Part shown: piece by piece, positions 45,872 to 51,353 of the stretch
Numbering within the stretch: position 1 is the first letter of the stretch
Layout of the letters: each line of letters opens with the position of its first letter
DNA from: Actinomyces sp. 432
GTDB taxonomy: Bacteria > Actinomycetota > Actinomycetes > Actinomycetales > Actinomycetaceae
Length of the DNA: 64,000 nt
Direction of reading: 5' to 3'
Assembly: GCF_009930875.1 (NCBI RefSeq)
Contig: NZ_CP025249.1
Coordinates: 744,001 to 808,000 of the forward strand
Notes under the pieces: model-generated
Database searches by the model: none
Seen by the model: only the letters and a program-made list of their open reading frames with translations
What the model was told of the DNA's origin: nothing
Translations under genes and position numbers: made by a program

Positions 45872-48800
45872 GCATTATCGCAGCTCGTGCGGGGTCGACC
45901 GGCTGTTTACAAGACAGCTGCTCTAGCGATGCGGATCATCCCCGCTCGCGCGGGGTCGACGGCCAAGATGAACAGGTCGACGTCTCTTATGTCGGATCAT
46001 CCCCGCTCGCGCGGGGTCGACTCGCGCCCCGGACCGTCACCGAGCGTGTCCGCGGGATCATCCCCGCTCGCGCGGGGTCGACTGTGGCGCCGGCTGCCTG
46101 CATGGCGCGTGCGGCGGATCATCCCCGCTCGCGCGGGGTCGACGCATGACCGCGCAGGAGCTGCTGGGACACCTCAGGATCATCCCCGCTCGCGCGGGGT
46201 CGACCAGGAGGGCGTCCCCGTCAACCAGGCCCAGTTGGGATCATCCCCGCTCGCGCGGGGTCGACGGCAGGGAGTCCAGGAGGGCTGCCTGCGTGTCGGG
46301 ATCATCCCCGCTCGCGCGGGGTCGACCCCTCCCGGGCTGTGGGGCAGACTCCCCGCCGGGGATCATCCCCGCTCGCGCGGGGTCGACTGGACGGCGGCGG
46401 TCAGGTCGGCGAGGAGGTCGGGATCATCCCCGCTCGCGCGGGGTCGACGTGCGTACCCCTGGCGACGGCGGCCGGTCGCCCGGATCATCCCCGCTCGCGC
46501 GGGGTCGACACCAGCAGCTCCCCACCGGACGCGGAGATGGCCGGATCATCCCCGCTCGCGCGGGGTCGACTGGTGGGTCGGATGCGCGTGGAGGCGGAGG
46601 GCGGGATCATCCCCGCTCGCGCGGGGTCGACGTACCCAGCAACAACGACGGCCGCGCCGAGGTCGGATCATCCCCGCTCGCGCGGGGTCGACGGCACGGC
46701 TCCCTGGGCGGCGTTGATCTCCCGCGGATCATCCCCGCTCGCGCGGGGTCGACCGTCACCCAACGCTTAAATCGAGCCGCGTCGGGGATCATCCCCGCTC
46801 GCGCGGGGTCGACGTTTGAATGTTTGCTTGGTTGATTGATTGGTTGGGATCATCCCCGCTCGCGCGGGGTCGACGTTTGAATGTTTGCTTGGTTGATTGA
46901 TTGGTCGTGGATCATCCCCGCTCGCGCGGGGTCGACGACGGGAGTGTGTAGATGTCGAGCCAGGGGCCGGGATCATCCCCGCTCGCGCGGGGTCGACCCC
47001 ATTGCGTATTGCGCGTACGACTGCGCGTTAGGATCATCCCCGCTCGCGCGGGGTCGACTGACTCACTCTTCCTCTACGATTCGCTGTCCTCGGATCATCC
47101 CCGCTCGCGCGGGGTCGACGGCAGGCCCGCGACCACGTCCTGGAGCAGGCAGGGATCATCCCCGCTCGCGCGGGGTCGACATGGTGAATGTCGGGATGAA
47201 GCCGACTGCTGCGGGATCATCCCCGCTCGCGCGGGGTCGACCCGATTCACGTACGTCTATTAGCAACACGGGCGGGATCATCCCCGCTCGCGCGGGGTCG
47301 ACGCCAATCCCGCGGCACCGTCGCCACGGGTCATGGGATCATCCCCGCTCGCGCTGGGTCGACGCCCACTGGGACGCTCGTATGAGCAGGGCTGCCGGAT
47401 CATCCCCGCTCGCGCGGGGTCGACGCACGCGTACGGAGGTGGGCTCCAAGATGCCTGGGATCATCCCCGCTCGCGCGGGGTCGACGCGCCGCCGTTGACC
47501 TTGTGCGCTGAGCCACGCGGATCATCCCCGCTCGCGCGGGGTCGACGCTTGCGCAGCATCTCGGTGTCGAGGTCATTAAGGATCATCCCCGCTCGCGCGG
47601 GGTCGACGACGGCGTGATGGGCTGGCGGTCGTGGAAGGTCGGATCATCCCCGCTCGCGCGGGGTCGACATCGCCTACCGTGCCGGTGAGGCGCGGTGGCA
47701 GGGATCATCCCCGCTCGCGCGGGGTCGACGGCGTCCGGCGGGTAATCCTAGCGTAATCGTGAGGATCATCCCCGCTCGCGCGGGGTCGACAACGCCACAG
47801 ATTTGGGGCAGATTCGGACGCAGGGATCATCCCCGCTCGCGCGGGGTCGACGGCAGGGCGTCGATCTCGGAGGCCGTCCACCCCGGATCATCCCCGCTCG
47901 CGCGGGGTCGACCCCTTATTGTCACTAATCATCGATGCGGTTCCGGGATCATCCCCGCTCGCGCGGGGTCGACATCTCCTGCCGCAGCTGCTCGCCCGTG
48001 ATCGGGGGATCATCCCCGCTCGCGCGGGGTCGACGGGCAGGTGCCCGCCGTCCGGGGCCAGCAGGATGGATCATCCCCGCTCGCGCGGGGTCGACACGGC
48101 ATCGGTGGCCCCATGACCATCAAGATGCGGATCATCCCCGCTCGCGCGGGGTCGACTCAGCGGTCGCCTTGGCGGAGTCAGCGGTCGCCGGATCATCCCC
48201 GCTCGCGCGGGGTCGACGCTCCGCCTGGATGAGTGACTGCGCAGATCCCGGGATCATCCCCGCTCGCGCGGGGTCGACGGCAGTATGAGGTGCCGTACGC
48301 GCCGACCGGGGGGATCATCCCCGCTCGCGCGGGGTCGACGAGGCTCACCGCAGCGAGCTGAACGACAAGTTGGGATCATCCCCGCTCGCGCGGGGTCGAC
48401 CTTCGGCAGGTGCAGGAGGGTATGCCTGCAATTGGATCATCCCCGCTCGCGCGGGGTCGACCCGGGGCACCAAGACTAAGCTGTCCCTATACCAGGATCA
48501 TCCCCGCTCGCGCGGGGTCGACTCACGTACCGCGACGGGCTCACATACCTAGAAGGGATCATCCCCGCTCGCGCGGGGTCGACCTTAAGGCGCACACCTA
48601 CGACCCTGATACCGAGGGATCATCCCCGCTCGCGCGGGGTCGACGCGGCAGCGACTGCCCCGACCGTGCCGCCCCGAGGATCATCCCCGCTCGCGCGGGG
48701 TCGACCCGATGACTGACCCGGCCATCATCACCCCCATCGGATCATCCCCGCTCGCGCGGGGTCGACCCCCACACCCAAGTGTCTGGGTGTGGGGCGGCAG

Positions 48801-49011
48801 GATCATCCCCGCTCGCGCGGGGTCGACGGAGCCCCGGACGGGTACGGCCTGTACGGCGTCCGGATCATCCCCGCTCGCGCGGGGTCGACCGGCGGTTCCC
48901 CTGTCTCCCGCGGCGGGCGTCGGGATCATCCCCGCTCGCGCGGGGTCGACGCGACCAAGTACGGGGCCGCCCAGAGCCTCGCGGGATCATCCCCGCTCGC
49001 GCGGGGTCGAC
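45872..49011 (-). CRISPR. type I-E CRISPR array, 52 repeats
   Basis: There are 51 intact 28-nt repeats from 45933 to 49011 at a 61-bp period, with a few steps of 60 or 62. On the plus strand each begins GGATCATCCCCGCTCG and ends CGCGGGGTCGAC; on the minus strand this is the classical I-E form beginning GTCGACCCCGCGCGAGCGGG, with a 6-bp stem around GCGA. Spacers are mostly 33 nt. A decayed repeat at 45872-45899 (23 of 28 matches) marks the old end, so the leader is on the right, next to cas2. The repeat at 47336 has one change, at 47355. All other repeats I read are identical. Confidence 0.99.
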
Positions 49012-49150
49012 GCTTGCGGATCCTTGGAATCCCAACGCCACGACAGCAAACTCTACACGTGATTCCTTTACTGCTGACCTAGTGCCAGCTCCGCCGAGTT
49101 GCGGAAGCGACGCCGTCGAGCAGCGATCGACCATGACTCCTTGGCTGGTC
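49012..49150 (-). promoter_or_regulatory. CRISPR leader
   Basis: About 140 bp between the first repeat and the original end of cas2. It reads on the minus strand into the array and should hold the pre-crRNA promoter and the integration site. It has the highest A/T content near the repeat (around 49040-49075). The IS element lies outside it, so it is intact. Confidence 0.7.
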
Positions 49151-49193
49151 TCACCGCGCCGGGAATCGACTTGGCTCCTTCGATCTGCCGGTA
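49151..49193 (-). pseudogene. cas2: severed 3' end of cas2
   Basis: Read on the minus strand this encodes TGRSKEPSRFPAR and a TGA at 49151-49153. Joined to the cas2 body across the IS with one TA removed, it continues the cas2 frame after GCIVMR and gives a 100-residue Cas2. It is now orphaned on the left side of the insertion. Confidence 0.85.
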
Positions 49194-50162
49194 CGGTGAG
49201 CGTTTCTCATCAGGGTTGAGGGGGTGCGGGTTGGGATCGTTGGGATGGTGCGGGAAGGTGGGTGTGTCGTTGGTGGGTGCACGCGGAGCCTTCCGGCAGC
49301 ATGTGTTTCGACCAAGAAAGCAAGCCCGGAAAGGGGCTCCGCGTGCTGTCCTATCGTGCCACTCTCGACGTCCCCGTGACTACTGCCCGCACCGTGTCCC
49401 GTTGGATCACCGCCCACCGCCGCCACCACGATGCGCGTCCCTGGCAGCGGGCCGCTACCAGCTGGGCCCAGGCTGTCATGCTGCTGCGCTGGCTGATCGA
49501 GGCCCCGGCCGTGACCACCGTGGCCCGCGACGCAGGAGTCTCACCCGCTACCGCCTACCGGTACCTGCATGAGGCCCTGGACGTCGTATCGTCAAAGGCG
49601 CCGGACCTGCCCGACGTGCTACGCACCCTGAAGGACAAGGGTGAGCCGTTCGTGTGCCTGGACGGCACCCTCATCCGCACCGACCGGGTCGCCGAGCGTG
49701 ACCCCGATACCGGATACCACCTGTGGTACTCGGGCAAGCACAAGGCCTTCGGTGGGAACGTGCAGGTGCTTACCGACCACACGGGCTACCCCGTGTGGAC
49801 ATCCCAGGTGGAGCCGGGCTCCACCCATGACATCGAGGCCGCCAGAGCCCATGTGCTGCCGGCCCTGTACCCGGTAGCCGCCCAGGGCATGGCGACGCTG
49901 GCGGACAAGGGCTACGTAGGCGCAGGCATCGGTATCAAGACGCCCATCAAGGGCTCCAAGCCCGACACCGGGGCGCGCTCCTACAACCAGGTCCAAGCCA
50001 GCCTGCGAGCCCCCGCCGAGCGAGCCAACGCCCTCCTAAAGGGCTTCAAAGCCCTCAAACGAGTCACCCTCGACCCAGCCACCATCACCAACATCACCGC
50101 CACCGCCCTAGTCATACTCAACCTGAACAACAACCTCCCCTGATGAGAAAGGCTCGGTGTAC
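49192..50162 (+). mobile_element. IS5-family insertion sequence inside cas2
   Basis: About 970 bp with imperfect terminal inverted repeats at 49191-49215 and 50138-50162, 21 of 25 matching and sharing the core TTTCTCATCAGGG. A TA at each outer edge is the likely target duplication. It carries one transposase gene on the plus strand, opposite to cas2. Precise removal with one TA restores the cas2 frame, which proves the insertion point. Confidence 0.9.
49343..50143 (+). CDS. IS5-family transposase, DDE_Tnp_4 type
   Basis: A transposase of about 266 residues. The N-terminal HTH is APAVTTVARDAGVSPATAYR. The catalytic triad is visible as VCLDGTLIRTDR (D), VEPGSTHD (D) and LRAPAERANALLKGFK (E), with LWYSGKHKAFGGNVQVLTD between. 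The GTG at 49343 has AAGGGG at 49331-49336; an upstream ATG at 49301 in the same frame is possible. The frame appears intact, so the element may still be mobile. Confidence 0.88.
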   Translation: MLSYRATLDVPVTTARTVSRWITAHRRHHDARPWQRAATSWAQAVMLLRWLIEAPAVTTVARDAGVSPATAYRYLHEALDVVSSKAPDLPDVLRTLKDKGEPFVCLDGTLIRTDRVAERDPDTGYHLWYSGKHKAFGGNVQVLTDHTGYPVWTSQVEPGSTHDIEAARAHVLPALYPVAAQGMATLADKGYVGAGIGIKTPIKGSKPDTGARSYNQVQASLRAPAERANALLKGFKALKRVTLDPATITNITATALVILNLNNNLP

Positions 50163-50421
50163 GCATCACTATGCAGCCCTCGATATCGACCGGGTCGCGA
50201 TCGTGGCCTAGAGAAGCGATTTCGAAGTGCTGCTCGGAGCGTGTGGACCAGATGAGCAGTGCCCTACCGTCGCCGATGTACGCCCTGATGAGCTCCCACA
50301 ACTGTTCACGCACCCGGGCTGACAGACGACCGACAAACACGCCCGGACTCACCTCGAGCAGCCAACGCGTCATAGCGCCACGCAGAGAGGCGGGCGCGGC
50401 GGAAAGAATCAGCACTACCAT
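49981..50421 (-). CDS. cas2: Cas2e adaptation nuclease-fold protein, C-terminus replaced by IS sequence
   Basis: Residues 1-88 are a normal Cas2e: MVVLILSAAPASLRGAMTRW, LLEVSPGVFVGRLSARVREQ, LLIWSTRSEQHFEIASLGHD and DPVDIEGCIVMR. Cas2 bridges the Cas1 dimers during spacer integration. The IS insertion removed the last 12 residues; the frame now runs about 58 codons into the antisense strand of the transposase before stopping at 49981. The core beta-strands are complete, so partial function is possible, but in E. coli the Cas2 C-terminal strand contacts Cas1. The ATG at 50421 overlaps cas1 by seven bases. Confidence 0.9.
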   Translation of the reverse strand: MVVLILSAAPASLRGAMTRWLLEVSPGVFVGRLSARVREQLWELIRAYIGDGRALLIWSTRSEQHFEIASLGHDRDPVDIEGCIVMRTPSLSHQGRLLFRLSMTRAVAVMLVMVAGSRVTRLRALKPFRRALARSAGARRLAWTWL

Positions 50422-51353
50422 CCGCCCGCATCCTCTTCCGAGTAGTTCGCGCCACCGGCAACTAGACGGCGTTGGTAATCCCACAGGGAAACCACGTTGA
50501 CGCTCAGATCATCCTCCGCCTCGGCGCCCAGCAAGTTGCAGATGTCCTTGACGGCGCGTTCAATGACGCGCAAGTCGAACACCTTGTCGCGCACTCGACG
50601 CCTGGTAGTGCCGGTCAAGTCCTCCATGCCCTCGGCCACGACGTCGAAGGCCATGGGGATCGTAGTCTCCGCCTTATAAAGGTCAGCGACGTCGTACACG
50701 AAGGAACGCTCGTGCCCGGTATGCACGAAGCCCAGGCCCGGCGAACAACCCAGCGAGACAATGACGCCGTGCACTACTCCGTAAAGGGCAGCATGGGCGG
50801 CGGACAGCGCCTGGTTGATCGGATCTGACGCCTCGAAGTCATCGGGCCGGTAGTCGCGGCGAGTCCACGGAACGCCGGTCCTGCGGGAGTTCTCCCGATA
50901 GATTTCGCGCACACGGGCACCCTCCCTTCCGCGCAGCTGCTGCATGGTGAGGCCACTGACGTCCTCACCATGGAAACGCATGGAGTACATCTCCCGGGCC
51001 ACCCGCAGACGCTTCTGCGGCGAGGAGACTCTGGCCGCCTGCTCCTCCAGCAAGCGGGTCGAGGTGGCCAACGAGCGTCCATGCGCGTAGTAGCGCACGC
51101 CCCGTTCACCGACCCAGACGGCAGTCGTCCCGCACTCGCCCAGCAGACACATGGCCTGATGGCTCACCGAGGTGCCGGGACCCAGAAGCACCGCGATCAG
51201 CGAGGCTGCCGGGACTCGGACAGTGCCCTGGTCATTGCGTGCTGTAAGCGCTCCGTCCTCGCGGTGCACCACGCATTGCTCCACATAGAGGAATGTCATG
51301 CGATCCTGCACGCGGGGGAGCGCAGTCACGGGAACCGGCAGCATCCGGGCCAT
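50415..51353 (-). CDS. cas1: Cas1e integrase
   Basis: A 312-residue type I-E Cas1 that integrates new spacers at the leader end. Family marks are LPRVQDRMTFLYVEQCVVHR, AVWVGERGVRYYAHGR, the metal ligands in RGREGARVREIYRE (Glu), GFVHTGHERSFVYDVADLYK (His, Asp), and the helical C-terminus. It starts three bases after cas6e ends and overlaps cas2. Confidence 0.96.
   Translation of the reverse strand: MARMLPVPVTALPRVQDRMTFLYVEQCVVHREDGALTARNDQGTVRVPAASLIAVLLGPGTSVSHQAMCLLGECGTTAVWVGERGVRYYAHGRSLATSTRLLEEQAARVSSPQKRLRVAREMYSMRFHGEDVSGLTMQQLRGREGARVREIYRENSRRTGVPWTRRDYRPDDFEASDPINQALSAAHAALYGVVHGVIVSLGCSPGLGFVHTGHERSFVYDVADLYKAETTIPMAFDVVAEGMEDLTGTTRRRVRDKVFDLRVIERAVKDICNLLGAEAEDDLSVNVVSLWDYQRRLVAGGANYSEEDAGGW

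What the first reader, a model, noticed from the sequence alone, without database searches (positions are those of the whole stretch)
49151..50421. IS5-family element inside the last codons of cas2, with the severed gene end still readable
The IS lies between two TA dinucleotides. Removing it with one TA joins GCIVMR to TGRSKEPSRFPAR and a stop beside the CRISPR leader, giving a 100-residue Cas2. The present cas2 instead runs about 58 codons into antisense IS sequence. Adaptation may be lost or altered while interference genes stay intact, which would freeze a 51-spacer array. The chimeric Cas2 tail may also be tolerated.
Basis: seen in the sequence. Interest (0 to 1): 0.7.

Follow-up and report, generated by a model that had tools for sequence, protein, structure and literature searches.

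The report
IS element truncating CRISPR Cas2 tail
A jumping element has landed in the last third of a bacterial CRISPR spacer-capture gene and cut off a conserved tail, which probably weakens the recording of new phages, in a strain whose CRISPR memory already matches two phages resident in its own chromosome.

Summary
The IS is real, but its boundaries and the predicted join are wrong. A 958-bp IS5-family element (49198-50155) is flanked by a 3-bp duplication, GGT, not TA; two further copies in the genome also have 3-bp duplications (AAT, AGT). Joined on one GGT, cas2 encodes 130 residues, collinear with the uninterrupted cas2 of the 28 other genus genomes whose type I-E cas2 was read. What was lost is a 42-residue tail with a W-S-x-A-x-R-R-type motif, as constrained as the core (pN/pS 0.14 against 0.13). 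The present Cas2 keeps 88 native residues, the Cas2 fold, plus 58 antisense-IS residues; leader, array and the other cas genes are uninterrupted. Adaptation is probably impaired (inferred). 'Interference intact' holds for the genes only: four spacers (2, 30, 41, 45) match two resident prophages perfectly next to an AA PAM, so interference is not clearing these targets; the cause (anti-CRISPR, silencing, other) is unknown. IS damage to cas genes is a known kind. The less ordinary parts are the tail-less Cas2 allele and the multiple self-targeting.

The parts
49198..50155 (+). IS5-family insertion sequence, 958 bp, inverted repeats GAGC(G/C)TTTCTCATCAGGG
   Evidence: three copies in the genome define the ends
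49262..50143 (+). transposase, 293 aa, DDE_Tnp_4; runs antisense to cas2
   Evidence: Pfam 74.4 bits, over the cut-off 24.8; NCBIfam IS5 family transposase 99.4 bits, below its cut-off of 140
49195..49197 (.). target-site duplication GGT, left copy
50156..50158 (.). target-site duplication GGT, right copy
49981..50421 (-). present cas2e: 88 native codons and 58 codons of antisense IS
   Evidence: PF09707 covers residues 2-84
49068..49197 (-). severed 3' end of cas2e, coding for the 42-residue conserved tail and the native stop
49012..49067 (-). non-coding leader, 56 bp, intact
45872..49011 (-). CRISPR array, 52 repeats (the last one degenerate, 5 mismatches), 51 spacers, leader end at 49011
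48890..48922 (-). spacer 2, perfect match with AA PAM to the integrase gene of resident prophage A (C1:1562245)
47181..47213 (-). spacer 30, perfect match with AA PAM to the repressor gene of prophage A (C1:1600996)
46510..46542 (-). spacer 41, perfect match with AA PAM to the antirepressor gene of prophage B (C1:2946636)
46266..46298 (-). spacer 45, perfect match with AA PAM to a 73-codon gene of prophage A (C1:1582138)
50415..51353 (-). cas1e, 312 aa
51357..59279 (-). cas6e, cas5e, cas7e, cas11e, cas8e and cas3, all full length

Best explanation
Shown: an IS5-family element inserted within codon 89 of a 130-codon type I-E cas2. It removed a conserved 42-residue C-terminal tail, replaced it with 58 antisense-IS residues, and left the Cas2 core, the leader, the array and the interference genes uninterrupted. 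Shown: four spacers are identical to DNA in two resident prophages, each next to an AA PAM. Inferred: Cas1-Cas2 can still assemble, but a tail-dependent step of adaptation (for example recruiting a trimming exonuclease, or holding leader or repeat DNA) is weakened or lost, so the array is largely frozen. Inferred separately: interference does not clear the prophages because it is inhibited or silent. The IS is an unlikely cause of that, since it lies outside the interference genes and upstream of the leader.
For: Three IS copies with 3-bp duplications. DNA collinearity of the joined site with G025. Uninterrupted cas2 with a tail in the 28 other genus genomes read. Tail pN/pS 0.140 against core 0.129 over 22 sequences. 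W-S/A motif in 103 of 110 Cas2 homologues of at least 110 aa, 92 by pattern and 11 by eye. Leu at a severed-tail residue that is Arg in 25 of 25 relatives L010-L034. No second Cas2 of family PF09707 in the genome. Chimera core confidently folded, its tail not, with target TM 0.87 to E. coli Cas2 of 4qdl. Self-matches and PAM, prophage hallmarks.
Against: No experiment. Chains of Cas2 in solved type I-E Cas1-Cas2 complexes end near the cut, so the tail may be dispensable for the integrase itself; E. coli Cas2 works without one (recalled). The model gives the native tail only low confidence. 7 of 110 homologues lack the motif and P0035 (94 aa, 3 contigs) ends before it. No isolate pair exists to show a frozen leader end. 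The motif set was found by similarity and is biased to near relatives.
Confidence: 0.6

Rival explanations
1. The chimeric Cas2 is tolerated: it keeps the fold and the Cas1 contact, adaptation goes on, and the IS is neutral.
For: Pfam and NCBIfam Cas2e domains are complete; model core pLDDT 85-98; 13 of the 16 best structure hits are chains of 92-101 residues, so what is seen in solved complexes ends near the cut; leader intact.
Against: The tail is as constrained as the core and kept in the 28 other genomes read; no database protein covers more than 73% of the chimera.
Confidence: 0.25
2. The insertion was selected: in a lysogen with perfect and near-perfect self-matching spacers, losing Cas1-Cas2 function stops further (primed) capture of prophage and chromosomal DNA.
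For: 13 of 51 spacers match the two prophage regions with at most 4 mismatches, 8 of the 13 with AA PAM; IS insertions in CRISPR loci arise among S. epidermidis escapers (PMC3784566, passages).
Against: The hit gene is not needed for interference (recalled), so it does not explain survival with perfect self-targets; the order of events is unknown; drift explains it as well.
Confidence: 0.1
3. Culture or assembly artefact: the IS is not at this place in the natural strain.
For: One genome of the species only; multi-copy IS can be misplaced in assemblies.
Against: Single-contig genome, exact 3-bp duplication at the site, three copies in three different contexts.
Confidence: 0.05

Closest known systems
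IS insertions in or beside cas1/cas2 in Mycobacteriaceae (PMC10333696, passages read)
   Same: A transposase interrupts or replaces adaptation genes of a CRISPR-Cas locus
   Different: There whole genes are disrupted or missing; here only the tail of Cas2 beyond the folded core is cut off
IS-made CRISPR escapers in S. epidermidis (PMC3784566, passages read)
   Same: IS insertion in a CRISPR-Cas locus of a cell that holds a target of its own CRISPR
   Different: Type III-A, with hits in csm5, csm6 and cas6 that abolish immunity; here the hit lies outside the interference genes
Cas2-DEDDh trimmer-integrase of Megasphaera (PMC10284694, passages and outline read)
   Same: Through the intermediate homologue P0075, the segment after the Cas2 core (G-F-S-x-A-A) aligns with the W-S-x-A tail
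   Different: There the segment lies in front of a fused exonuclease, and the region is called a flexible 38-residue linker; in Actinomyces it ends the protein. A direct search with Actinomyces Cas2 aligns only to residue 93
Self-targeting spacers as markers of anti-CRISPR (PMC6739104, passages read)
   Same: Perfect self-targets in a genome with a complete type I-E set
   Different: No anti-CRISPR family was seen among those displayed here

Membership tests
IS5 family | DDE transposase of IS5 type | tested here: met
   DDE_Tnp_4 over its cut-off; NF033581 IS5 family transposase at E 2.2e-28 but 99.4 bits, below its cut-off of 140
IS5 family | Terminal inverted repeats and a short target duplication (3 bp in some subgroups; recalled) | tested here: met
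   18-base ends with one difference; GGT, AAT, AGT at three sites
Type I-E CRISPR-Cas | cas3, cas8e, cas11e, cas7e, cas5e, cas6e, cas1e and cas2e beside an array | tested here: met
Cas2e | TIGR01873 and PF09707 domain | tested here: met
   both over their cut-offs in the chimera
Cas2e as found in this genus | Conserved C-terminal tail | tested here: not met
   severed by the IS; present in the 28 other genomes read
Adaptation-deficient CRISPR locus | No new spacers gained | not testable with these tools
   no second isolate of the species; needs culture or an assay
Self-targeting CRISPR | Perfect match with PAM in the same genome | tested here: met
   spacers 2, 30, 41, 45
Anti-CRISPR-protected self-targeting | An acr gene in the genome | tested here: inconclusive
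   105 small prophage-region ORFs: no acr among the 25 of 68 NCBIfam families and 25 of 32 Pfam families displayed; none in PHROGs for 10 of them

The most novel reading that the evidence does not exclude
The W-S-x-A-x-R-R tail is a separate functional module of stand-alone Cas2e that shares origin with the segment in front of the exonuclease in Cas2-DEDDh fusions and serves to recruit a trimming nuclease or hold leader DNA. This strain is a natural separation-of-function allele lacking it, fixed in a double lysogen whose prophages carry an undescribed type I-E anti-CRISPR.
Probability: 0.2. Interest if true: 0.65.

Novelty: new member of a known kind. Interest (0 to 1): 0.4.

Why it matters
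IS damage to cas genes is a known kind. This case points to a conserved Cas2 tail that the solved complexes found here do not seem to resolve and whose role I did not find described, and it supplies a natural allele without that tail to test it. The four perfect, PAM-bearing matches to two resident prophages mark this strain as a place to look for a type I-E anti-CRISPR or another form of inhibition in Actinomyces.

Tried and rejected
TA-bounded element and 100-residue Cas2: rejected by three IS copies and IS-free relatives.

Block of crRNA production by the IS: considered unlikely. The IS lies upstream of the 56-bp leader, which keeps its conserved block and a -10-like TAGNNT (17 of 22 leaders, counted by eye). 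There are no transcript data.

Cas1 Q26 as a second lesion: the residue aligns with Megasphaera His29, which stacks on the end of the prespacer duplex. It is the only private change in Cas1 at a column otherwise invariant over 23 relatives. A wider set weakens the idea: 111 His, 6 Arg and 2 Gln in 119 homologues, the best 119 others of 7997 scored. Kept as a remark, not a claim.

General decay of the cas genes: not seen. Private departures number 11 in the window, 10 in L079, 10 in L080 and 4 in L081; cas11e of L080 and cas3 and cas8e of L081 dropped out of this count. In cas3 alone the window has 8, L079 1 and L080 6.

External targets: the array matched 22 phage records, 18 of them at one tRNA-Thr-like stretch at the trailer end. 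The 110 plasmid records matched look mostly like other arrays (my reading). A viral-contig search with P0225 found no relative; P0225 proved to be an N-terminally short gene call with a normal tail, so the search was of no use.

Self-match comparison: six other genomes, unequally sampled: 135, 60 and 90 spacers for G025, G032 and G044, but only 16 leader-end spacers for G045, G027 and G034. No full-length perfect match was seen outside places that look like arrays, but G045 has a 31-base perfect match 3.2 kb beyond its matched array and an 83% match of 85 bases elsewhere; G044 has two imperfect ones (91% over 45 bases, 88% over 34); G034 has hits some 60 and 115 kb from its array. None of these was resolved. 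For G025, G032, G044 and G027 only 40 of the first-look candidates were scored.

Full report
What is there. The window lies in a 3,141,809-base single-contig genome. Its closest named Cas1 relatives are Actinomyces ruminicola and A. ruminis, both 97%. On the minus strand run cas3, cas8e, cas11e, cas7e, cas5e, cas6e, cas1e and cas2e, then the leader and an array of 52 repeats and 51 spacers with its leader end at 49011.

The IS. Two other full copies in the genome fix its ends at 49198 and 50155: one identical, one scoring 1724 against 1728 bits. All three are flanked by 3-bp direct repeats: GGT here, AAT and AGT elsewhere. The transposase is of IS5 type. The TA rule of the finding is wrong.

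The empty site. With one GGT kept, cas2 reads 130 codons. The minus-strand halves end ...GCGTACACC and begin ACCGTACCGG...; G025 reads ...GCGCACACCGTACCGG..., collinear. Of 49 genus genomes, own included, 34 have a Cas1 match. cas2 was read in loci L009-L036, one per genome, 28 other genomes; the remaining five have only distant Cas1 matches and were not read, except that L037 gave no Cas2 to my pattern. All 28 have an uninterrupted cas2 with a tail; L035 and L036 have a divergent tail with GWS.

The lost tail. Over 22 ungapped 130-codon sequences (21 relatives and the joined window), mean pN/pS is 0.129 for codons 2-88, 0.286 for 89-107 and 0.140 for 108-130; mean pS falls to 0.44 in the last ten codons, next to the leader. 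Constraint on the tail protein is thus as strong as on the core, with a hint of added constraint on the DNA. Of 132 Cas2 homologues from two searches, 110 have at least 110 residues; 92 of these match a W/F-S-x-A/V/G pattern and, reading the other 18 by eye, 11 more have a variant, leaving 7 without. The set is biased to near relatives because it was found by similarity. The homologue P0075, with such a tail, aligns over its whole length with Megasphaera Cas2-DEDDh and nearly so with S. thermophilus Cas2; the Actinomyces protein itself aligns only to residue 93, so the link is indirect. The Megasphaera paper describes a flexible 38-residue linker between Cas2 and DEDDh (PMC10284694, passages). 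The severed tail in the window has Leu at a residue that is Arg in 25 of 25 relatives L010-L034, a hint of relaxed constraint.

What remains. The chimera keeps the Pfam and NCBIfam Cas2e domains. Its model has a confident core and an unstructured tail, and matches Cas2 of an E. coli Cas1-Cas2 complex with target TM 0.87. Of the 16 best structure hits, 13 chains have 92-101 residues and three have 73-78; the S. thermophilus chain has 122 residues in sequence but 92 in the structure library, and Cas2-DEDDh 289 and 93. I take the difference to be unresolved residues. The native tail is modelled as a helix, 110-126, at low confidence. So the fold and probably the Cas1 contact survive; a flexible, conserved, basic appendage is gone. 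The genome has one PF09707 match and one match to this Cas1. No protein found in the database covers more than 73% of the chimera.

The leader. Stop to first repeat is 56 bp, with a block CGTTGGGATTCCAAGGATC shared wholly or nearly by most of 22 leaders, and a -10-like TAGNNT in 17 of 22 by eye. Both are present in the window, between the IS and the array.

Self-targeting. The array searched against its own genome gave matches clustered at C1 1.562-1.601 Mb and 2.907-2.949 Mb, with four at 100% over 33-34 bases (40 of 134 candidates scored). Scanning all 51 spacers over the fetched stretches, spacers 2, 30, 41 and 45 match without mismatch and have AA immediately upstream. In total 13 spacers match with at most 4 mismatches, 8 of 13 with AA; the five others include some with changes in PAM and first bases (12, 15), as escape would give. 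Shuffled spacers (3 x 51) gave none at 7 or fewer mismatches. Spacers of G025 with at most one mismatch to these regions have AA in 6 of 7 cases, two of which hit the same place; this supports AA as the PAM. Both regions are prophages: A has integrase, terminase, portal, major head protein and repressor; B has integrase, endolysin, tape measure, portal, terminase, RecT and antirepressor. The perfect matches fall in A's integrase (2), repressor (30) and a 73-codon gene (45), and in B's antirepressor (41). In six comparison genomes, unequally sampled, I saw no full-length perfect self-match outside places that look like arrays; G045 has an unresolved 31-base one. The interference genes are full length and show no clear excess of private changes. 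I infer inhibition or silence, cause unknown. No anti-CRISPR family was among those displayed, which is weak evidence.

How it most likely works. Shown: the tail is cut off; core, leader and array are kept. Inferred: spacer capture is reduced or lost because the tail's function is missing. A separate inference: interference is blocked at least for the prophages. Whether the IS was selected in this setting or drifted cannot be told. The near-identity of the IS copies suggests recent transposition, so even a total loss of adaptation would have left little trace in the array yet.

Known or new. IS hits in adaptation genes are described in Mycobacteriaceae (PMC10333696, passages) and IS-made CRISPR escapers in S. 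epidermidis (PMC3784566, passages). Searches for Actinomyces with CRISPR, cas2 and insertion sequence (5 papers) and for a C-terminal tail with Cas2, Cas1 and type I-E (4 papers) listed nothing that by title and displayed abstract describes this case. I read passages of one of these nine (PMC10011333), where the C-terminal tail meant is that of Cas1. Many journals are not held.

Noticed in passing
window 45872-49011; C1:1562245-1601028 and C1:2907645-2948743 (L071-L076): Four spacers match two resident prophages perfectly with an AA PAM and nine more match with 1-4 mismatches: multiple self-targeting with full-length interference genes.
   Followed up: yes
window 50415-51353, Cas1 residue 26: Gln where the genus relatives have His, at the residue aligned with Megasphaera His29 that stacks on the end of the prespacer duplex; 2 of 119 other homologues also have Gln and 6 have Arg.
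   Followed up: yes
window 46814-46908, spacers 35 and 36: Two neighbouring spacers differ only in their first bases, as if the same protospacer was captured twice with a slipped start, or one unit was duplicated and changed.
   Followed up: no
window 45900-45932, spacer 51: The oldest spacer resembles tRNA-Thr genes of several phages and, with 6 mismatches, a place in the prophage B region.
   Followed up: partly
L071:8925-10874 and L074:11667-12971: Both prophages carry, between integrase and lysis genes, small genes without PHROG match near a shared phrog_2311 HTH gene: possible anti-CRISPR candidates.
   Followed up: partly
P0035 (94 aa, 3 contigs); P0004, P0012, P0016, P0018: A few metagenomic Cas2 proteins end or change frame within the tail: possibly further natural tail-less alleles, or sequencing errors on short contigs.
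   Followed up: no
window 49012-49110 and relatives L010-L034: In this genus the non-coding leader is only about 56-57 bp, so the 3' end of cas2 may double as leader DNA; synonymous differences are lowest in its last ten codons.
   Followed up: partly
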